Shown here piece by piece: positions 6,290 through 53,380 of a stretch of DNA of 58,956 nucleotides. The stretch's first letter is position 1. Each line of letters starts with the position of its first letter. The notes beneath the pieces are model-generated. The model was not told the origin of the DNA and searched no databases. It saw nothing but the letters and a program-made list of their open reading frames with translations. Made by a program: the position numbers and the translations under genes. This DNA comes from Candidatus Gastranaerophilales bacterium. Lineage in GTDB: Bacteria > Cyanobacteriota > Vampirovibrionia > Gastranaerophilales > Gastranaerophilaceae. The DNA lies in contig CALUVN010000005.1 in assembly GCA_944324235.1 (NCBI GenBank), positions 1 through 58,956 of the forward strand. The letters are read 5' to 3'.

Positions 6290-7288
6290 TTATTCGGTTG
6301 CCTTTTCAATATCTTTTAATGAAATATTAAATTTCAAAAGATAATATCCGCCAAGAACCGTTAATATAATCATATAAATAGCCTGATGTATAGCAGAAAC
6401 TGCTAAAGCTGTCGACTTTTCTATACCGAAAATTCCGAGTGCCAGAATATAAGCATACTGATAAGGTCCGAGAAAAACAGACGTTGAAGGAATCATCGTA
6501 GAAAATGAAGTAAGACTAATAACAAATAATGCCGCAGCAAATCTTAAACCTAAGTCAAAACTATCAACAATAAGAAATGCTACATAAGCCTCAAGTCCCC
6601 ATATTACGAAACTAGCAGATATTGATATTAAAGTATATGAGAGATTGTCAAGTACCTGAAACCCTTGCATAAATGACTTCATATAATTTCTGACTTTGTC
6701 AGTAAAACTTAAAAGCGGATTAGAAAATTTTACAGGCAAAGGCTTAAACAATTTAGAAATTTGAGCAAAAATCCAATCAATTTTATCAAATTTAAAAATT
6801 AAATAAAATACGAGAAGAGAGCCGATAAACAATGCACCTATTCCGTATGCGAGATGAAAAATCCAGGCCTGTCTGCAGTACATCATCACAGCAAACAGTA
6901 AAATTAAAAACACGCAAATTCCGTCAAAAATCCGCTCCAAAATAATAGAGCCGAGAACTTTCATCTTACTTTCCTGCTTAACCGAACCGAGATAATATGC
7001 ACGATAAACATCACCAGCACGAGCCGGTAAAAATATATTCAGCATACTGCCGACAGTAAAAATTTCAGCAAGACTCAAAGACGAATATTTGGGATTATTC
7101 AGCAAAAGAACCTTCCACCTGATACCGCGGACAAACATTGTCAGCACGTACAAAATAATAATCCATACCAAATTTTTACAGTCAAAATTTTGAAAAGTAT
7201 GTATAAGTTCAGATAAATCAATCTTATAAAAAATCAATACAATAAATGCTAAACTTATTAATAATGCAAAAATATTTCTCTTCTTCAT
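6290..7288 (-). CDS. LPG-synthase-TM / flippase-like integral membrane protein
   Basis: 332-residue polytopic membrane protein of the UPF0104/AglD-like family, the membrane half found in lysylphosphatidylglycerol synthases (LPG_synthase_TM). It has about eight hydrophobic segments. Family marks include FVRGIRWKVLLLN after the second segment and ARAGDVYRAYYLG in the middle. No cytoplasmic aminoacyl-transferase domain is attached, so it cannot by itself be called MprF; stand-alone members are usually proposed to move or modify lipid-linked substrates. A -10 (TATTAT at 7300-7295) ends 6 bases before the ATG, with no ribosome binding site. Confidence 0.8.
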   Translation of the reverse strand: MKKRNIFALLISLAFIVLIFYKIDLSELIHTFQNFDCKNLVWIIILYVLTMFVRGIRWKVLLLNNPKYSSLSLAEIFTVGSMLNIFLPARAGDVYRAYYLGSVKQESKMKVLGSIILERIFDGICVFLILLFAVMMYCRQAWIFHLAYGIGALFIGSLLVFYLIFKFDKIDWIFAQISKLFKPLPVKFSNPLLSFTDKVRNYMKSFMQGFQVLDNLSYTLISISASFVIWGLEAYVAFLIVDSFDLGLRFAAALFVISLTSFSTMIPSTSVFLGPYQYAYILALGIFGIEKSTALAVSAIHQAIYMIILTVLGGYYLLKFNISLKDIEKATE

Positions 7289-7294
7289 ACAAAT

Positions 7295-7300
7295 ATAATA
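7295..7300 (-). promoter_or_regulatory. -10 element of flippase-like gene, predicted leaderless
   Basis: Minus-strand TATTAT with 6 bases to the ATG at 7288. The -35 is weak (TTAAAT-like). It lies just after the gatD stop, suggesting this gene has its own promoter as well as possible read-through. Confidence 0.42.
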
Positions 7301-7318
7301 TCATGAAAATGTTAGGAT

Positions 7319-8056
7319 TTAATAAGCTTTTCCAACAAGAGAAAGATGTGTTTTTAACTCCAAATCATCATCAAGTTTATCAAGCTGAATTTTTTCGCCG
7401 TAGCGTTTTTCCAGAGCAAGCTCGATTAAATAATCAGCAAAATGAGGATTTTTAGGAAGAAAAGACCCGTGCAGATATGTACCGAAAACATTCATATAGC
7501 GAGCACCTTCAGTCATATCCGTACCGTTATTACCATTTCCGACAACAACAGAGGCTAGAGGTTTTGTATCTCCCTGCAGGTAAGTAAGTCCGCTGTGATT
7601 TTCAAACCCGACAAGCGTGTCAGGAGTCAAATAGTCTACTTTAGCAGTAACATTACCGATAAATCTTTTTTTACCGGCAACAGTATAAGCATCCAGAAGA
7701 GAAATTCCCTCTAATTTATCACCGTTGTGAGGCTGATAATAGTGTCCAAAAAGCTGATACCCGCCGCAAATACCCAGAAATACCGCACCATTATCACGCT
7801 GGTGAGTCAGGAAATCTTTATTTTTTTTCAATTCCTCTGCAACATCAATCTGTTGTTTATCCTGCCCGCCGCCGATAAAATAAATATCAGACTCAGGAAT
7901 ACTTTTACCGGGATTAACCTCAAAAAATTCAACGGAAATTCCGCGCCACTCACAGCGCTTTTTTAATGTAATAATATTTCCTATATCGCCATATAAATTC
8001 AATAGTTTAGGATACAAATGCGTAATTGAAATTTTTAAATCACTCTTCTTTTCCAT
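7319..8056 (-). CDS. gatD: lipid II isoglutaminyl synthase, glutaminase subunit GatD
   Basis: CobB/CobQ-like class I glutamine amidotransferase of the GatD type. GatD supplies ammonia from glutamine to MurT, which amidates the D-Glu of lipid II peptidoglycan precursor. The nucleophile is Cys97 in FLGICGGYQLFG and the catalytic His is His196 in YLHGSFLPKNP. The opening ITHLYPKLLNLYGDIGN is typical of GatD. The 245-residue start (MEKKSDLKIS) was chosen because a TATAAT ends 6 bases before it and the family begins here. No murT is adjacent, although the two are usually neighbours. A cobyric-acid-synthase-like role is the alternative. Confidence 0.86.
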   Translation of the reverse strand: MEKKSDLKISITHLYPKLLNLYGDIGNIITLKKRCEWRGISVEFFEVNPGKSIPESDIYFIGGGQDKQQIDVAEELKKNKDFLTHQRDNGAVFLGICGGYQLFGHYYQPHNGDKLEGISLLDAYTVAGKKRFIGNVTAKVDYLTPDTLVGFENHSGLTYLQGDTKPLASVVVGNGNNGTDMTEGARYMNVFGTYLHGSFLPKNPHFADYLIELALEKRYGEKIQLDKLDDDLELKTHLSLVGKAY

Positions 8057-8062
8057 ATACAA

Positions 8063-8102
8063 ATTATAACATATTTTTAGAGAAATTTGTACGTGATATA
8101 AT
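8063..8102. promoter_or_regulatory. divergent promoters of gatD and tatD, both predicted leaderless
   Basis: The 52-base region between the two start codons carries a minus-strand TATAAT (8068-8063) ending 6 bases before the gatD ATG and a plus-strand TATAAT (8097-8102) ending 6 bases before the tatD ATG. Neither gene has a Shine-Dalgarno. The -35 regions must overlap in the middle and are weak. Confidence 0.6.
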
Positions 8103-8108
8103 AAATTT

Positions 8109-8876
8109 ATGAATAAATATCTCATTGATACTCATACCCATATTGATATGATTGAAAGCCACACCGCTGACGAAATCATACAGCTGGCGGCTGAAAATAA
8201 CGTAAAAAAAATGATAATCCCCGGAGTTACACCGGATTCTGACAATGTAATTTTCCCGCTCATAGAAAAATACGAAAATTGTTTCGGTATGCTCGGTGTA
8301 CACCCTTCAGAAGCTAAATTGTACAATGAGGAAGCAGAAGAACATATAGAAAAAATGTTACAACACGATAAAATAACAGCAATCGGAGAAATAGGGCTGG
8401 ATTATTACTGGGATAAGACATTTAACGACATACAGCAGGAAGTTTTTATAAAACAGATAAAACTCGCCAATAAACATAATCTTCCGATTTGCGTACACGA
8501 CAGAGAAGCGCATAAAGATACATTTGATATTCTGAAAGAATACAATAAAGGCTCTGATGTTGTACTGCACTGCTACTCAGGCAGCGTTGAATTTGCAAAA
8601 GAATGCATCAAAGAAGGCTGGTATTTAGGTCTTGGCGGGGTCGTAACATTCAAAAACGCAGTTAAAATGAAAGAAACGGCGAAGGAAATCCCGCTTGAAA
8701 AAATAGTTCTTGAAACAGATGCACCTTATCTGACACCAGTACCTTTCAGAGGCAAAGAAAATCAGCCTGCTTATGTAAAATATGTTGCAGAAGAAATTTC
8801 ATATATAAAAGGCATTCCGCTTGATGAAGTTGCGGAAATAACATCCCAAAACGCTGAAAGGATTTATCGGATATGA
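8109..8876 (+). CDS. tatD: TatD family metal-dependent DNase
   Basis: 255-residue TIM-barrel hydrolase of the TatD family (3'-5' exonuclease/DNA repair type). Metal and catalytic motifs are in order: THTHID near residues 8-13, GVHPSEA, GEIGLDYYWD, CVHDREAH, VLHCYSGS and ETDAPYLTPVP. The length is normal for the family. The start is predicted leaderless. The stop overlaps the start of the next gene by 4 bases (ATGA), so the two are translationally coupled. Substrate preference cannot be read from sequence. Confidence 0.94.
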   Translation: MNKYLIDTHTHIDMIESHTADEIIQLAAENNVKKMIIPGVTPDSDNVIFPLIEKYENCFGMLGVHPSEAKLYNEEAEEHIEKMLQHDKITAIGEIGLDYYWDKTFNDIQQEVFIKQIKLANKHNLPICVHDREAHKDTFDILKEYNKGSDVVLHCYSGSVEFAKECIKEGWYLGLGGVVTFKNAVKMKETAKEIPLEKIVLETDAPYLTPVPFRGKENQPAYVKYVAEEISYIKGIPLDEVAEITSQNAERIYRI

Positions 8877-9688
8877 AAAAAGAAAGATTAGATAAATACC
8901 TTACGGACTTGGGATATTTTGAGACAAAAAGCAAGGCTTCAGCTGCAATTCTTGCAGGACATGTCAAAATTAATGATGAATACATAACAAAATCAGGATT
9001 TCAAATCTCACCTGAAAAAGAATATGACATTCAGGTTAAATCAATGCCTTATGTTTCACGCGGAGGATTTAAACTGAAGAAAGCACTCGACACATTTCCT
9101 GTCAAAGTACAGGATAGAATTTGCTTTGATGCAGGCGCATCAACAGGCGGATTTACCGATTGTCTGCTGCAAAACGGGGCTAAATTTGTTTACGCGGCAG
9201 ATGTCGGTTACGGACAGTTAGACTGGAAAATACGCTCATCTGAAAAAGTTAAAACAATTGAAAGAACAAACTTAAAGCTGTGCGCCTATACTGATATTTA
9301 TGCTGAAAACGAACCGGTTGCTGATTTACTCGTAAGTGATTTATCGTTTATATCACTCACCAAGGTGCTCGAAAATTTAAAAAAATTATTAAACCAAGAC
9401 TATCACGAAATGATATGCCTTATAAAACCACAATTTGAAGCGGGAAAAGAAAATGTGGAAAAGGGCGGAGTTGTCAGAGACAAAAAAATTCACGCAGAAG
9501 TAATAAAAAACGTCTTGGAATTTGCTCAAAATATCGGCTACAAAGTCAAAGGGCTTACTTATTCGTCCATAAAAGGACCTTCCGGCAACATTGAATATCT
9601 TGTATGGCTGGAATTCGGAGGCACTGAAGAATATCAGACTGCGGATATAACAAATATAGTTGAGGAGGCTTTTACAAACCTGAATTAA
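8873..9688 (+). CDS. tlyA: TlyA family rRNA 2'-O-methyltransferase / hemolysin-like
   Basis: 271-residue TlyA family protein: an N-terminal S4 RNA-binding domain (about 3-60; KERLDKYLTDLGYFETKSKA) and an FtsJ-type SAM methyltransferase domain with CFDAGASTGGFTDCLLQ as the SAM-binding loop and KPQFEAGKENVEKGGVVRD near the end. Characterised members 2'-O-methylate 16S and/or 23S rRNA; the old name hemolysin is historical. It is coupled to tatD by a 4-base overlap. The 3' end is convergent with the next minus-strand gene after 6 bases. Confidence 0.92.
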   Translation: MKKERLDKYLTDLGYFETKSKASAAILAGHVKINDEYITKSGFQISPEKEYDIQVKSMPYVSRGGFKLKKALDTFPVKVQDRICFDAGASTGGFTDCLLQNGAKFVYAADVGYGQLDWKIRSSEKVKTIERTNLKLCAYTDIYAENEPVADLLVSDLSFISLTKVLENLKKLLNQDYHEMICLIKPQFEAGKENVEKGGVVRDKKIHAEVIKNVLEFAQNIGYKVKGLTYSSIKGPSGNIEYLVWLEFGGTEEYQTADITNIVEEAFTNLN

Positions 9689-9694
9689 AAAAAT

Positions 9695-10114
9695 TTAAAT
9701 CTTTTTCAATTCAACAGTCTGCAAATCCGTATTAAGCTCAATATACTTAAAAAGATTCACAACAATCCCGAGCGGGAAATAATAAATATTGTTTGCCGGA
9801 GTGACTTTCAACAGTGAACGTTTGGAGTCCAATTCCGATATATTTGCAAGAAACTGTTTATTTGCTGCAGTAAAAAGAATATACCCGGATTTTGTCTGAA
9901 TTTCATCTATTCTGAATTTATTTGCATTGATACTTGCTATTGTAAGATAGAACAATCTTTCGGAATTTACGTTGAAAATTTTATTACAATATTCAAAGTC
10001 TACATTCTGCGGAGTAACAAGAGATTGCACCGTCATAACAGTTTCAGCAGCTGCAGGCAGAGCGCCTGAAACAACCATCAATAAACCTATCATTATAATT
10101 ATAATTCTTGCCAT
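9695..10114 (-). CDS. secreted hypothetical protein
   Basis: 139-residue protein of unknown function with a clear signal peptide (IIIIMIGLLMVVSGALPAAAE, cleavage after about residue 23). The mature part is about 115 residues with alternating hydrophobic positions, suggesting beta structure. I see no known motif. It overlaps the polA stop by 16 bases and so is the last gene of the tig-clpP-clpX-polA transcript. Confidence 0.7.
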   Translation of the reverse strand: MARIIIIMIGLLMVVSGALPAAAETVMTVQSLVTPQNVDFEYCNKIFNVNSERLFYLTIASINANKFRIDEIQTKSGYILFTAANKQFLANISELDSKRSLLKVTPANNIYYFPLGIVVNLFKYIELNTDLQTVELKKI

Positions 10115-12957
10115 GTTCCCCCCACTGAAATGTCTACTACAAGAGGAACTCTCAGAGGTTGATTAAGTTCCATAGCTTCCTTAATTAATAATTTCACCTG
10201 CTCAAGTTCATCTTTTTCTACTTCTACAACAAGTTCGTCATGCACCTGCATAATTAATTTTGATTTTAAATTGTTATCTTTTAATTTTTTAGAAAATTCT
10301 ATCATCGCTATTTTAATTAAATCCGCAGCAGAACCTTGCATCGGCTGGTTTATAGCAGCACGTTTTGCAAATTCACGAATCATATTATTTGAACTTGACA
10401 ATTCTGTCAAAAGATAACGCTTACGACCGTACATAGTTTCCACAAAACCGTGTTCTTCCGCCATTTTTACTGTTGCTTCCATATATGCTTTTACTCGCGG
10501 ATAAGTTGCAAAATATTTTTCAATAAATAATTCCGCATCGGAATTTGATATTCCTAGTGACTTGGCCAAACCGTATTTGCTCTGTCCGTATACAATACCG
10601 AAATTAACAGCCTTAGCCTTATACCGCATTTCTTTGGTAACTTCCTCTATAGGTACATCAAAAACTTTTGAAGCCGTCAGTGTATGAACATCCACACCGG
10701 AATTAAAGGCATAAATCAGATTTATATCTTCTGATATGTGTGCAAGAAGCCGCAACTCAATCTGAGAATAATCCGCAGAAAGAATAACCGCTTTTTTCTT
10801 ATCCTTAGGAACAAAAGCCTTTCTTATCTTGTTACCTTCATCAGTCCTTATAGGAATATTTTGCAAATTAGGATTTGATGAAGAAAGTCTTCCGGTCGCA
10901 GTAATAGTCTGGTTATAAGTTGTATGGATTCTGCCGTCAAGCGGACTTATTAATTGAGGAAGGGCATCCGTATAATTTGAACGCAACTTCGCATACTTGC
11001 GGAATTTCAAAATCAAATCAGCAATTTCATACTCCTGAGCAAGCTCTTCCAAAACATCAGCACTGGTTGAATATTGTGCCTTACCGCGGCGTTTCTTTGA
11101 TTTTAGCTGAAGCTTATTAAACAAAATGTCCCCGACCTGTTTTGGAGAATTAATGTTAAAGCCTTCGCCTGCAATATCATAAATTCGACGTTCAATACGC
11201 TTTTGCAGTGTTTCAAAAGACAAAGATAACTTTGAAAGATAATCTACATCAATAGAAACCCCGTCATATTCCATATCTGCAAGAACCTTAGCAAGCGGAA
11301 TTTCCATGTTTAGTAAAATATTTAATTCATCAGAATCTAAATTTTTACTCCAAAAGTCCACAAGTCCGAAAATAGTATCAATAATATCAGACTCATAATC
11401 CAAAACATTTGTAATTATTGCATCCTGAATTTTTACTCTGTTTTTTTTGACAGCCTCATACTGCGCGAATTCACTCATAGCATGCTCAAGATGCTCAATT
11501 GACTGAACATCAATTTCATGACTTCTTGCAGGATTTTTGATATAGCTTGCAAGCATCGTATCAAATATAACCCCCCGAAGATTAATCCCGTTATTGCGCA
11601 AAATACTATATTCCGTTTTATAATCATGAGTTACTTTTTTAATATTTTCGTCTTCAAAAATATTTTTTAATTCAGGTAACACATTCTCAGCCAAAAGCTG
11701 ATTTTCAAGGCTATGCTCAAGAGGAATATAGAAAACAGAAGTGGAAAGCTTTGCATCCTGAATATCCATAGAATCATTCTGCCAGGTAAAATTATCATTA
11801 AAGCCGATACTGATACCAATCAAATTTGAAGATACAGCATTAACAAAATCGGCTTCAAGCTTGAAAGCTATGACGGATTTAGTTTTCAACACGTCAAGCA
11901 TAGACGCAAAATCAGCAGAATCAGTAACCAGAGTGCCAACAGATGAGGGTTCTGATTTATTAATTTGAGACTTTACTGCCTCAGAAAAAAAGCCAAGCTG
12001 TAGCGGCGAATCAGTGGTGCTCAAAACCGTTTTTTCATCAGAACACTCTACAGAATTTTTATTAAATGATTGGAGAATAGGATTTATATTTTTTATAAAA
12101 CTATAAAACTGCATGCGTTTTAAAAAATCCGTAACATCAGAAAGTACAGGCAAATTAATTTTTGCAGCATCGAAATCAAAATCAATATCCACATCTCGGA
12201 TAATAGTCGCAAGAAATTGGCTTAACTTTGCCTGTTCAATACCTGCACAAATTTTTTCTTTAACAGCCTTTTCAGGAATATTTTCGCAATCGGCAAGCAC
12301 GGCATCGAGAGTACCATATCTTGCGAGTAGCTTCTGTGCAGTCTTTTCTCCTATACCGCGCACTCCCGGAATATTATCTGATAAATCCCCTCTCAAGCCT
12401 TTATAATCAATAACTTGATTAGGATAAACACCTAATTTATCATAAACAGCCTGCCAGTCATACTCTTTCAACTCACCCTTAGACGGGATAATAACTTTGA
12501 CGCAGCCATCTTTGTCTATTAGTTGAAAAGCATCCTGATCGCCTGTCAAAATCAAAATTTTATGCCCCAGCTCGCAGGCCTTTTTAGATATAGTACCTAT
12601 AACGTCATCAGCCTCATAACCTTCTTTAGAATACACAGGTATATTAAAAGCCTTTAATCCCTCAGCAATTAATCCCATTTGCACCCGCATCGGATCAGGC
12701 ATTGCTTCACGATTAGCTTTATAGTCTGAATACTTTTCAGTTCTAAAAGTCCTGTGGCTTACATCAAATGTAACAGCAATTGCGTCAGGGCAAATAGAGT
12801 TATTTTTTAATAAATCAAATATAGCCTTGAAAAAACCGTAAACAGCCCACGTAGGTGTGCCGTCAGTCGTTTTCATATTAGTACGCTCAAGAGCAAAATA
12901 CTGTCTGAAAGCCAATGCATGACCATCTATTAAAATAAGTGTTTTGCTTTTTTCCAT
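10099..12957 (-). CDS. polA: DNA polymerase I
   Basis: 952-residue repair/Okazaki-processing polymerase. The N-terminal 5'-3' exonuclease (1 to about 290) carries LILIDGHALAFRQYFA and IDYKGLRGDLSDNIPGVRGI. The C-terminal polymerase domain has motif A (LSADYSQIELRLLAHIS), the O-helix KAVNFGIVYGQSKYGLA and motif C (MQVHDELVVEV). In the central 3'-5' exonuclease region the catalytic acids look replaced: the usual DxE is FKLEAD, and the later aspartates align with Glu, so proofreading is probably lost. The start MEKSKTLILIDG has GGGGAT upstream. It lies 25 bases after clpX. Confidence 0.96.
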   Translation of the reverse strand: MEKSKTLILIDGHALAFRQYFALERTNMKTTDGTPTWAVYGFFKAIFDLLKNNSICPDAIAVTFDVSHRTFRTEKYSDYKANREAMPDPMRVQMGLIAEGLKAFNIPVYSKEGYEADDVIGTISKKACELGHKILILTGDQDAFQLIDKDGCVKVIIPSKGELKEYDWQAVYDKLGVYPNQVIDYKGLRGDLSDNIPGVRGIGEKTAQKLLARYGTLDAVLADCENIPEKAVKEKICAGIEQAKLSQFLATIIRDVDIDFDFDAAKINLPVLSDVTDFLKRMQFYSFIKNINPILQSFNKNSVECSDEKTVLSTTDSPLQLGFFSEAVKSQINKSEPSSVGTLVTDSADFASMLDVLKTKSVIAFKLEADFVNAVSSNLIGISIGFNDNFTWQNDSMDIQDAKLSTSVFYIPLEHSLENQLLAENVLPELKNIFEDENIKKVTHDYKTEYSILRNNGINLRGVIFDTMLASYIKNPARSHEIDVQSIEHLEHAMSEFAQYEAVKKNRVKIQDAIITNVLDYESDIIDTIFGLVDFWSKNLDSDELNILLNMEIPLAKVLADMEYDGVSIDVDYLSKLSLSFETLQKRIERRIYDIAGEGFNINSPKQVGDILFNKLQLKSKKRRGKAQYSTSADVLEELAQEYEIADLILKFRKYAKLRSNYTDALPQLISPLDGRIHTTYNQTITATGRLSSSNPNLQNIPIRTDEGNKIRKAFVPKDKKKAVILSADYSQIELRLLAHISEDINLIYAFNSGVDVHTLTASKVFDVPIEEVTKEMRYKAKAVNFGIVYGQSKYGLAKSLGISNSDAELFIEKYFATYPRVKAYMEATVKMAEEHGFVETMYGRKRYLLTELSSSNNMIREFAKRAAINQPMQGSAADLIKIAMIEFSKKLKDNNLKSKLIMQVHDELVVEVEKDELEQVKLLIKEAMELNQPLRVPLVVDISVGGTWQEL

Positions 12958-50602: not shown

Positions 50603-50786
50603 AATATACACTTAATAAATTGTTACAATAAATGTTAGTACTTATATAATAAGCGTTTCTGACTAATCTCCATAAGCTTCAATGTTCATTACAAGCAATT
50701 TTTAATTTAGCCTCGCATTTATATATACATAAGATATAACACATATTAAAACATGTAGTGATGCACAAATTAAGAAAGGAGCACTT

Positions 50787-51650
50787 ATGTCAGGTGAGAG
50801 AATTGATCCTATCACGACGTCGACACAGAACACACAAAATAGCACTGTGACTCGACACTCTGAAGAGAGAATTAACTCGGTAATAACAGAATCTAAAAAG
50901 TCCGGCGAAAAACCTGTAGCCGCAGATACTACGAAAACACCAGTAATTGAATATGATACCATTTATGTTGATAAAGTTGTAAATGATACTATATATATAT
51001 CTAAGGAAGAACAACTTGCAGCCCAACGGCGGGAGCAAATCAAAAAAGTTGCCAACAACATAGTCAGCCAATTATATAAATCAATTGATGGACTCGGAAC
51101 AGATGATGAATTATTTGAAAAAACTTTAAATCGCATTAACAAAGATAATATTCTTGAAGTAATAGAAGAATGGGACAGAACCTGCGGCAAAGAATACGGA
51201 GAAAGCTTCTTTGAATCATTCTTAGGAGATGCAGATCCAGCACAACGCAAAAAATACGGCGAACAACTTATGAATGCGCTTGTTGAAAGAGCAAATGAAA
51301 TCGGACGGAATGATAACGGAATAGAAATCAGATTACCCGAGTATAAGAAAGAACTTAATTCGAAATTCTTTGTCAACAATTCCAAATTGGCAGCAATTTT
51401 CAATACAATTGCCGATGAAACTAAATTATTTCAGCAAGGTGCTGATGCAGTTAAACACATCGAAATGACACTTGACGAGCCGATAATTTTTGATACAGGA
51501 AAAGCCGAGCTGCACGAACAAACAGGCTTTGATGAAAACGGCAATCCTGTATATGAGGTAACGAATCTGCAAAGACTTGACCCCGGAGAATACACCAGTG
51601 AACCGGTTTATCTACTGGGTGGCGAACTATATAGAAAAGTTGAAGAATAA
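50787..51650 (+). CDS. hypothetical protein with annexin-like repeat
   Basis: 287-residue protein without signal peptide. Residues about 88-168 look like an annexin repeat: VSQLYKSIDGLGTDDELFEK, followed by helices up to LEVIEEWDRTCGKEYGESFF and LGDADPAQRKKYGEQLMNAL. The GLGTDD loop is the type II calcium-binding loop of annexins. The first 75 residues are Thr/Ser-rich and disordered; after the repeat there is a beta-rich C-terminal region. Annexins bind membrane phospholipid with calcium, but most need four repeats, so a scaffolding role is possible. The ribosome binding site AAAGGAG is strong. Confidence 0.72.
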   Translation: MSGERIDPITTSTQNTQNSTVTRHSEERINSVITESKKSGEKPVAADTTKTPVIEYDTIYVDKVVNDTIYISKEEQLAAQRREQIKKVANNIVSQLYKSIDGLGTDDELFEKTLNRINKDNILEVIEEWDRTCGKEYGESFFESFLGDADPAQRKKYGEQLMNALVERANEIGRNDNGIEIRLPEYKKELNSKFFVNNSKLAAIFNTIADETKLFQQGADAVKHIEMTLDEPIIFDTGKAELHEQTGFDENGNPVYEVTNLQRLDPGEYTSEPVYLLGGELYRKVEE

Positions 51651-51658
51651 TATCCTAC

Positions 51659-51698
51659 AAAAAAAAACGACTCAGGTCAACAGACTTGAGTCGCTTTT
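51659..51698. terminator. bidirectional terminator
   Basis: CGACTCAGGTC and GACTTGAGTCG pair (one G-U) around AACA, with A and T runs on both sides, between the convergent annexin-like gene and pckA. Confidence 0.86.
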
Positions 51699-51718: not shown

Positions 51719-53380
51719 CTACACACCTGCAAGGGCTGTTGCTTCTTTAACAACAGATTCAAGAGCAGTAAGTGCATCCGCCGGTAATTTATCAATACCG
51801 GCTTTTTCAGTTTCTCTTGATTTAACGAAGTTAATTCTATCTTGCATACGTGCAACGAATTGAGCTGCATACTCTTTATTAGAGAATGAAGCGTCAAATC
51901 CGTCGATATCCATAATTTCAATATCAGAGAAGTTTTCCCATTTATGGAACTTAGCAGAACCTTCAACAATAGCTTCAATAATACCCAAAGTATGTTTAGG
52001 TTGAACTTTAGTACCCATAAATTCACCTGTATTGAGGATATAGCAATCAACTCCGTCTTCGATTAATTTTTTGAATCTTGTGTAATCCATTTCAAGCGGA
52101 TAAACTCTGAACGGATTAGCATAAGGTTCAACAACCAGCGCGTTAGGGTCAACACCTGCAGCAAGTCTTTCAGCTGATGTACGTTTTGTAGCAAGAGTTG
52201 CACCCATTGCAGATCCTAAAGAAGCTCCTGACAACTTAAGAACCGGCGGAATTGTAGGGTCTTTCATTAACCAGAAAATAGCATTAATAGGTTCATCAAT
52301 TCTGTCAACTCTGTTTGGTGACCACAATTTAGATTTAACAGCACGACCGTTACCGTTTCTGATATCTTCAGTAACAGAAACTACTTTACCGTCTGCAAGC
52401 TGTATAGCACCTGCGTTTTGCTGAGTTAAAATGTATTTGTTATCATCGCATCCGATAGGATAATCTGCTGTTTTATCAAAATAAGCAGGTTCAAGCGCGA
52501 TAGTATATTTATCGTGAATATTAATAACAAATGCATCATCGTGAAGAACTGTGATATTGTATTTATTATTATGTTTAGCGTGAGTAATAGTAGATTTACC
52601 TGATCCAGAGAGCCCAAATACAGCAACCTGGAATGATTTACCGTTATCAAGGTTATAACGTTTCATACCGCCGTGGCAAGAAGCATATCCGTTACGTGCT
52701 GCACAACCCCAGGCAAGAGTCAATGTACCTTTTTTGTGTTCACCAAAGTATCTCATACCAAGAATACAAGCGCAGTTATGTTCAGGATCAAAGAAAGTCA
52801 AACCATACGGGAAGTCAGGGTGAGTCCAGTCAGGATCAGAAAATACAAAGATATCGCCATCTGGCAATTCTCTTGAATCCGCGTACATATTAGCGTATTC
52901 TTCATTAATGTATTGGAAATTCAACATCCAAGAATACATAATATTTTCAAAGCCTTCAGGAATCATTAAGTGAGCCTTAACCATAAAGTCTTTATCTAAA
53001 CCAACCACAACCTCAGTTTTGTACATTAATTTATCGCGTGTACCATAAATTGCTTCACGGATAATTGGTAATAAATATTTCAAATCACAATTTGGTTCAC
53101 CAACAATTTTTCTGGCAGCAGCGCAACGGCCGACAACAGTACCATCGTTAAATAAAAGCTGATTTGCACCTTGCGGCAAACCTAATTTTTCCGGTTTATA
53201 AACCGGCATGCCAGTTAATTCTATAGTTCCCGGACTTGATTTTGCTAATTTGTACGCTTCTGAAACTGTTTTAATTTCTTCTACGTTATTGCCAAAGAAT
53301 GGTGCAGTAATAGTTGCACGAGCAGCTGACATTAGCTTTTTTAATTCTTCTGAATTTGTAAAAAATTCCTTTGTAGCCAT
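51719..53380 (-). CDS. pckA: phosphoenolpyruvate carboxykinase (ATP), divergent
   Basis: 553-residue enzyme interconverting oxaloacetate and PEP with ATP/ADP. The P-loop is VFGLSGSGKSTITHAK, replacing the more common GLSGTGKTTLS; VLHDDAFVINIHDKYTIALE matches the metal-binding DD segment, and CYILNTGEFMGTKVQPKH the adenine-binding region. The divergence from E. coli PckA is visible, with unusual insertions in the first 200 residues, but the order of motifs is kept. In an anaerobe it may run in the fermentative direction, making oxaloacetate for succinate. AAGGAG precedes the ATG. Confidence 0.85.
   Translation of the reverse strand: MATKEFFTNSEELKKLMSAARATITAPFFGNNVEEIKTVSEAYKLAKSSPGTIELTGMPVYKPEKLGLPQGANQLLFNDGTVVGRCAAARKIVGEPNCDLKYLLPIIREAIYGTRDKLMYKTEVVVGLDKDFMVKAHLMIPEGFENIMYSWMLNFQYINEEYANMYADSRELPDGDIFVFSDPDWTHPDFPYGLTFFDPEHNCACILGMRYFGEHKKGTLTLAWGCAARNGYASCHGGMKRYNLDNGKSFQVAVFGLSGSGKSTITHAKHNNKYNITVLHDDAFVINIHDKYTIALEPAYFDKTADYPIGCDDNKYILTQQNAGAIQLADGKVVSVTEDIRNGNGRAVKSKLWSPNRVDRIDEPINAIFWLMKDPTIPPVLKLSGASLGSAMGATLATKRTSAERLAAGVDPNALVVEPYANPFRVYPLEMDYTRFKKLIEDGVDCYILNTGEFMGTKVQPKHTLGIIEAIVEGSAKFHKWENFSDIEIMDIDGFDASFSNKEYAAQFVARMQDRINFVKSRETEKAGIDKLPADALTALESVVKEATALAGV

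What the first reader, a model, noticed from the sequence alone, without database searches (positions are those of the whole stretch)
50787..51650. Bacterial protein with an annexin-like repeat
Residues about 88-168 contain GLGTDD followed by helices spaced as in an annexin repeat, ending EYGESFFESFLGD. The GxGT-D/E loop is the hallmark type II calcium site. Annexins are rare in bacteria, and a protein with a single repeat, a Thr/Ser-rich N-terminal region and a beta-rich C-terminal region is uncommon. The family is recognised by me from motif spacing only.
Basis: partly seen in the sequence, partly recalled or inferred. Interest (0 to 1): 0.62.

Follow-up and report, generated by a model that had tools for sequence, protein, structure and literature searches.

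The report
Divergent annexin domain in gut bacteria
This gut bacterium makes a small protein with one calcium-site-bearing unit of the annexin kind, known mainly from animal and plant membrane-binding proteins, and the unit turns out to be one copy of a large and apparently undescribed bacterial family.

Summary
ORF 50787-51650 (287 aa) carries GLGTDD at residues 102-107 in a helical domain. The annexin reading is supported. A profile of 23 relatives finds annexins almost exclusively in the PDB (best E 1.5e-14). A 14-sequence AlphaFold2 model (pLDDT 91.9) gives the five annexin helices and matches annexins (Z 9.9, 1.8 A over 80 residues). A profile of tandem bacterial annexin repeats finds this ORF alone among 96 window ORFs (E 3e-11). 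The calcium-site residues G102, G104, T105 and D148 are present. The protein alone scores below Pfam's annexin cut-off, has one repeat instead of four, and carries two extra helices, so I call it a divergent annexin-repeat homologue, not a canonical annexin.

The domain is in 136 of 191 sampled genomes of this Gastranaerophilales family, up to eight copies each, in many architectures (LysM-amidase-lysozyme, EF-hand, calpain-like). The site is kept in short proteins (55/63) and mostly lost in long ones (6/43). None of 107 has a signal-peptide-like N terminus. Best guess: an exported calcium-dependent membrane-binding adaptor; binding and export are untested. Single bacterial annexin repeats were already known: new variant of a known kind.

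The parts
50787..51650 (+). CDS, 287 aa, single annexin-like repeat protein
   Evidence: ortholog in G003; dN/dS 0.23
50775..50781 (+). ribosome-binding site AAAGGAG
   Evidence: read directly from sequence
50787..51002 (+). residues 1-72: Ser/Thr/Asn/Gln-rich, no hydrophobic segment, DTIYVDK...DTIYIS motif
   Evidence: the motif recurs in another protein of the genome, L003
51003..51299 (+). residues 73-171: annexin-like repeat, helices A 73-100, B 107-114, C 122-131, D 141-148, E 151-171
   Evidence: AlphaFold2 model, pLDDT 91.9; VIA-align Z 9.9 to annexin A2
51090..51101 (+). G102-L103-G104-T105, A-B loop of the type II calcium site
   Evidence: sequence; G104 and T105 invariant in A3
51228..51230 (+). 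D148, acidic cap residue of the type II site (aligns with E72 of annexin A5)
   Evidence: invariant in A3; acidic in 103 of 106 family repeats; the A5 alignment was made by hand
51315..51473 (+). residues 177-229: family-specific C-terminal extension, helices F 177-190 and G 198-229
51474..51647 (+). residues 230-287: C-terminal region of unknown fold, found only in this protein and its ortholog among the sequences collected
   Evidence: phmmer; low confidence
51668..51693 (+). terminator-like stem-loop followed by T run
50721..51660 (+). segment absent from sister species G001 (flanks collinear, 10 bases between them)

Best explanation
The gene encodes a divergent annexin-repeat homologue: one annexin-type five-helix repeat with an intact type II calcium site, extended by two helices, between a flexible Ser/Thr-rich N terminus and a small C-terminal region. 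Most likely it is exported without a Sec signal peptide and works as a calcium-switched adaptor. In the calcium-rich gut lumen, backbone carbonyls of the G102-T105 loop and the D148 carboxylate hold a calcium ion that bridges to an anionic phospholipid head group or glycan, tethering the protein, and whatever its flanking regions bind, to a membrane or envelope surface. Supported here by computation: fold, homology, site residues, purifying selection, family spread, lack of a signal peptide. Inferred: export, calcium binding, lipid binding, adaptor role. Identity as an annexin-repeat homologue is about 0.95 likely; the confidence below is for the full mechanism.
For: Family profile against PDB: annexins almost exclusively, E 1.5e-14. 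Five-helix annexin fold at pLDDT 91.9, pTM 0.85, Z 9.9 with 1.8 A over 80 residues to annexin A2. Site residues invariant among close relatives. The site stays intact across short relatives (55/63) while it is mostly lost in long ones (6/43), in clustered branches of the tree (6 changes against 33.6 in shuffles). 0 of 107 family proteins have a hydrophobic N terminus against 23% of control ORFs, although some carry peptidoglycan-hydrolase domains that act outside the cytoplasm. A divergent flagellum-type (type III) export gene set is in every genome tested, including those without flagellin, and could export them.
Against: No binding, export or localisation data. Eukaryotic annexins bind membranes with four repeats; one repeat is expected to bind weakly. 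The C-D loop is four residues longer than in annexin A5, so site geometry may differ, and I could not inspect model coordinates. The export route is circumstantial: no gene linkage between the annexin-like genes and the type III-type cluster was seen, and the protein could be cytoplasmic.
Confidence: 0.4

Rival explanations
1. The domain has the annexin fold but works as a protein-protein docking or structural module, not as a calcium-dependent membrane binder; the GxGT loop is kept for folding.
For: In the long enzyme-bearing branch the GxGT loop is mostly lost while the domain persists, so the fold has a use without the site. The most conserved position, N121 at the start of helix C (107 of 118 letters), is not one of the calcium-site residues.
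Against: In the branch holding the window protein both loop and acidic residue are kept in nearly every member.
Confidence: 0.35
2. It is a cytoplasmic protein that scaffolds the inner membrane or an internal structure, and the family is not exported at all.
For: No signal peptide in any member; no gene linkage to a secretion locus.
Against: Several relatives carry LysM, Amidase_3 and lysozyme domains, which act on cell wall outside the cytoplasm.
Confidence: 0.15
3. It is an accessory domain of a delivered effector that helps cross or reach a target membrane, as proposed for single annexin domains in toxins delivered by phage-tail-like systems (PMC3482391).
For: A paralog in the same genome joins the domain to a metallopeptidase-like region with weak M90/M13 hits (L086), similar to the annexin plus metallopeptidase architecture described there.
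Against: The window protein has no recognisable catalytic domain, and no contractile-sheath gene was found in its genome.
Confidence: 0.07
4. The resemblance is convergent: an unrelated helical bundle with a chance GLGTDD loop.
For: Single-sequence Pfam search ranks Annexin fourth at E 0.11, below three other weak hits.
Against: Profile E 1.5e-14 to annexins almost exclusively, fold match, a single-repeat family member over Pfam's annexin cut-off (G033), 0 of 5000 shuffles as good.
Confidence: 0.03

Closest known systems
Bacterial annexins (Cytophaga hutchinsonii and others, 17 species, PMC3894181)
   Same: Single or few annexin repeats with the GxGTD loop in bacteria, some joined to enzymatic domains
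   Different: None of the listed species is a Gastranaerophilales member; here the repeat has a two-helix extension, a longer C-D loop, family-wide multi-copy expansion, and partners (LysM, amidase, lysozyme, calpain-like) not listed in the parts of that paper I read
Single annexin domain in toxins of phage-tail-like delivery systems (Haliangium, Microscilla; PMC3482391)
   Same: Single annexin domain as an accessory module; one paralog here also has a metallopeptidase-like region
   Different: No contractile sheath in this genome; the window protein has no recognisable toxin domain
Eukaryotic annexins A1, A2, A4, A5, A6 (PF00191)
   Same: Five-helix repeat, type II calcium loop and acidic cap
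   Different: One repeat instead of four or eight, about 8-18% identity over the structural match, extra helices F and G
Astrotactin-2 and giardins (structural matches)
   Same: Annexin-type repeats outside the classical annexins
   Different: Eukaryotic, larger assemblies; no close sequence relation tested

Membership tests
Annexin (PF00191) | Homology to annexin repeats by sequence profile | tested here: met
   A1 profile against PDB E 1.5e-14, hits almost exclusively annexins; profile of tandem bacterial annexin repeats finds the ORF at E 3e-11
Annexin (PF00191) | This protein alone passes Pfam's gathering score of 25 bits | tested here: not met
   13.1 bits whole protein, 15 bits domain alone; a relative, L067/L010, passes with 28.8
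Annexin (PF00191) | Five-helix annexin fold, helices A-E | tested here: met
   AlphaFold2 pLDDT 91.9; VIA-align Z 9.9, 1.8 A over 80 residues. Predicted, not solved
Annexin (PF00191) | Type II calcium site residues GxGT plus distant acid | tested here: met
   G102, G104, T105, D148 by sequence; G104, T105 and D148 invariant in A3
Annexin (PF00191) | Four (or eight) repeats forming the annexin core | tested here: not met
   One repeat plus two helices
Annexin (PF00191) | Calcium-dependent binding to anionic phospholipid | not testable with these tools
   Needs purified protein
Type III-type secretion substrate | No Sec signal, Ser/Thr/Asn-rich N terminus | tested here: met
   compatible, not diagnostic
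Type III-type secretion substrate | Shown export through the apparatus | not testable with these tools
   Only presence of apparatus genes was shown
Phage-tail-like (contractile) injection cargo | Contractile sheath gene in the genome | tested here: not met
   PF04984: no match in G000-G005

The most novel reading that the evidence does not exclude
A lineage-wide expansion turned a single annexin repeat into the shared surface-targeting module of an exported repertoire (wall hydrolases, proteases, adaptors) in Gastranaerophilales, delivered without signal peptides by a flagellin-less, flagellum-type export apparatus.
Probability: 0.15. Interest if true: 0.8.

Novelty: new variant of a known kind. 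Interest (0 to 1): 0.52.

Why it matters
A 2014 survey found bacterial annexin repeats patchily, in seventeen species. Here a divergent form is a common, multi-copy building block of one order of uncultured gut bacteria, including versions that kept the calcium site and versions that mostly lost it. That gives a natural series for asking what a single annexin repeat does, and for testing the idea that eukaryotic annexins descend from bacterial ones. If the proteins are exported, they would be an unrecognised class of calcium-responsive surface proteins in the gut.

Tried and rejected
Single-sequence searches of Pfam, PHROGs and NCBIfam gave only weak, mixed hits, so I relied on family profiles. 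Other weak Pfam hits (Lips, Phage_T7_Capsid, MG491_central) were dropped because the profile and fold point to annexins. Phage or viral origin: no match in phage records or viral contigs. Anti-phage defence: no PADLOC hit for this protein. Type IV secretion: no VirB4-family match in 13 genomes. RNA features: no Rfam match. The AlphaFold2 run without an alignment was uninformative (pLDDT 35.8). The first genome-contig scan, with the broad alignment, found no stretch conserved enough and was repeated with four closer sequences. Foldseek alone gave no E below 0.3, though its top rows are nearly all annexins or annexin A2 fusions.

Full report
Observation. The window ORF 50787-51650 (+) encodes 287 residues. 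The gene stands alone: a promoter-like match at 50622-50650 (within chance numbers), an AAAGGAG site, and a terminator-like hairpin at 51668-51693, followed by a convergent phosphoenolpyruvate carboxykinase gene (named by me from its sequence, 51719-53380). The sister species G003 has a 79% identical ortholog at the same place; dN/dS between them is 0.23, so it is a maintained protein-coding gene. In sister species G001 the flanks are collinear but the 940-base segment is missing, leaving 10 bases; in G002 the same place holds a two-gene pair that looks like a nucleotidyltransferase with a HEPN-type partner (my reading), and G003 has both. It is an accessory gene at a variable site.

Is it an annexin repeat? 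The protein alone gives Pfam Annexin at E 0.11, below the cut-off and behind three other weak hits, and PDB annexin A4 at E 3e-4. Family evidence is much stronger. A profile from 23 relatives (A1) run against the PDB lists annexins almost exclusively, best E 1.5e-14; among the 60 rows shown the only one that is not an annexin or annexin fusion is a designed helical repeat at E 0.02. Within the window, a profile built only from tandem annexin repeats of other order members (L021, L022, L062, L085) finds this ORF and none of the other 95, E 3e-11; a profile of 101 family domains without close relatives finds it at E 5.8e-38; none of 5000 shuffles reaches either score. One single-repeat family member, in G033, passes Pfam's annexin cut-off (28.8 bits). 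With an alignment of 14 sequences from the window and named genome contigs (A3), AlphaFold2 gives pLDDT 91.9 and pTM 0.85, helices A 73-100, B 107-114, C 122-131, D 141-148, E 151-171, then F 177-190 and G 198-229. VIA-align matches residues 80-166 to annexin A2 at Z 9.9, 1.8 A over 80 residues (rank 1, entry 7pc5, an annexin A2 fusion), and the listed rows are overwhelmingly annexins, annexin A2 fusions, giardins and astrotactin-2. The tool notes that helical bundles can reach such Z by chance; the agreement with independent sequence evidence is what makes it convincing.

Calcium site. Type II annexin sites use the GxGT loop and an acidic side chain about 40 residues on. Here the loop is G102-L103-G104-T105. 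Aligning to annexin A5 by hand (sequence from memory), with a four-residue longer C-D loop, D148 takes the place of E72. G104, T105 and D148 are invariant in A3; over 106 family repeats the acid is kept in 103, and G104, T105 and the acid together in 61. The site is complete in 55 of 63 repeats in proteins under 600 residues and 6 of 43 in longer ones. On a tree of 103 domains the two states are clustered (6 changes against 33.6 in shuffles), with the window protein well inside the intact branch. The proteins were not drawn at random, so the fractions are indicative.

Spread. The domain occurs in 136 of 191 genomes sampled from the window's family, one to eight matches each, and in 111 of 240 from the class, all positives in that same family; one match lies in another family of the order (G051, L016). 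Contig titles name most hosts as Candidatus Gastranaerophilales or Melainabacteria, several from chicken or ruminant guts. The window's own genome has four. Architectures among collected proteins: domain almost alone in about 150 residues (L116, L141); long N-terminal regions with a recurring WTSNYG-like start, then the domain; LysM-domain-Amidase_3-lysozyme (L087, own genome); LysM-two domains-Amidase_3 (L117); EF-hand plus domain plus weak calpain hit (L120); HD (L136) and FHA (L130) in very long proteins; and a weak M90/M13 metallopeptidase-like region (L086, own genome).

How it may work. Known from annexins: calcium in such a loop bridges to anionic head groups. Known from PMC3894181 and PMC3482391: single annexin repeats occur in bacteria, some in delivered toxins as accessory domains. 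Shown here by computation: fold, homology, site residues, selection. Inferred: that the window protein binds calcium and a membrane or envelope surface, and that it is exported. For export there are two circumstantial facts. None of 107 family proteins has a hydrophobic N-terminal segment, against 23% of control ORFs, yet some carry cell-wall hydrolases. And the 13 genomes examined all have FlhA/SctV-family and FliF/SctJ-family genes, also the seven genomes without flagellin, which hold only the divergent kind; in G002 it is a FliE-FliF-unnamed-FliH-FlhA cluster whose FliF, FliH and FlhA score below the curated cut-offs for FliF, FliH, FlhA and SctV. No linkage between that cluster and the annexin-like genes was seen.

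Novelty. I found no paper in the held library linking bacterial annexins to this order, which is not proof of absence. I rate it a new variant of a known kind: homologous to the annexin repeat, but failing two annexin features tested (cut-off for the single protein, four-repeat core).

Noticed in passing
L162 (G002:C5) 6329-12540; G000:C54 and C55 (L148): A divergent flagellum-type export cluster (FliE, FliF, unnamed 348-aa protein, FliH, FlhA) beside ATP synthase genes; FlhA/SctV-family and FliF/SctJ-family genes are in all 13 genomes tested, including seven without flagellin.
   Followed up: partly
L149 11076-12560 (G000:C20): A 494-aa protein matching only the C-terminal cytosolic part of FlhA/SctV; similar short FHIPEP matches occur in many relatives.
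   Followed up: no
L168 961-1676 (G002) and L169 1583-2298 (G003): A nucleotidyltransferase-like and HEPN-like gene pair sits at the same variable site that holds the annexin-like gene; G001 has neither.
   Followed up: partly
L022, L021, L085, L062: Proteins with up to four tandem, clearly annexin-type repeats; L022 also has an EF-hand-like DSNGDGKLD motif by eye.
   Followed up: partly
window 50787-51002 and L003 931-2400: The DTIYVDK-type motif of the N terminus is repeated many times in a 489-aa protein elsewhere in the genome.
   Followed up: no
window 50787-51470 against L004: Synonymous divergence from the ortholog is much higher in residues 1-72 (dS 2.4) than in the domain (dS 0.29), hinting at recombination or poor alignment of the N terminus.
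   Followed up: no
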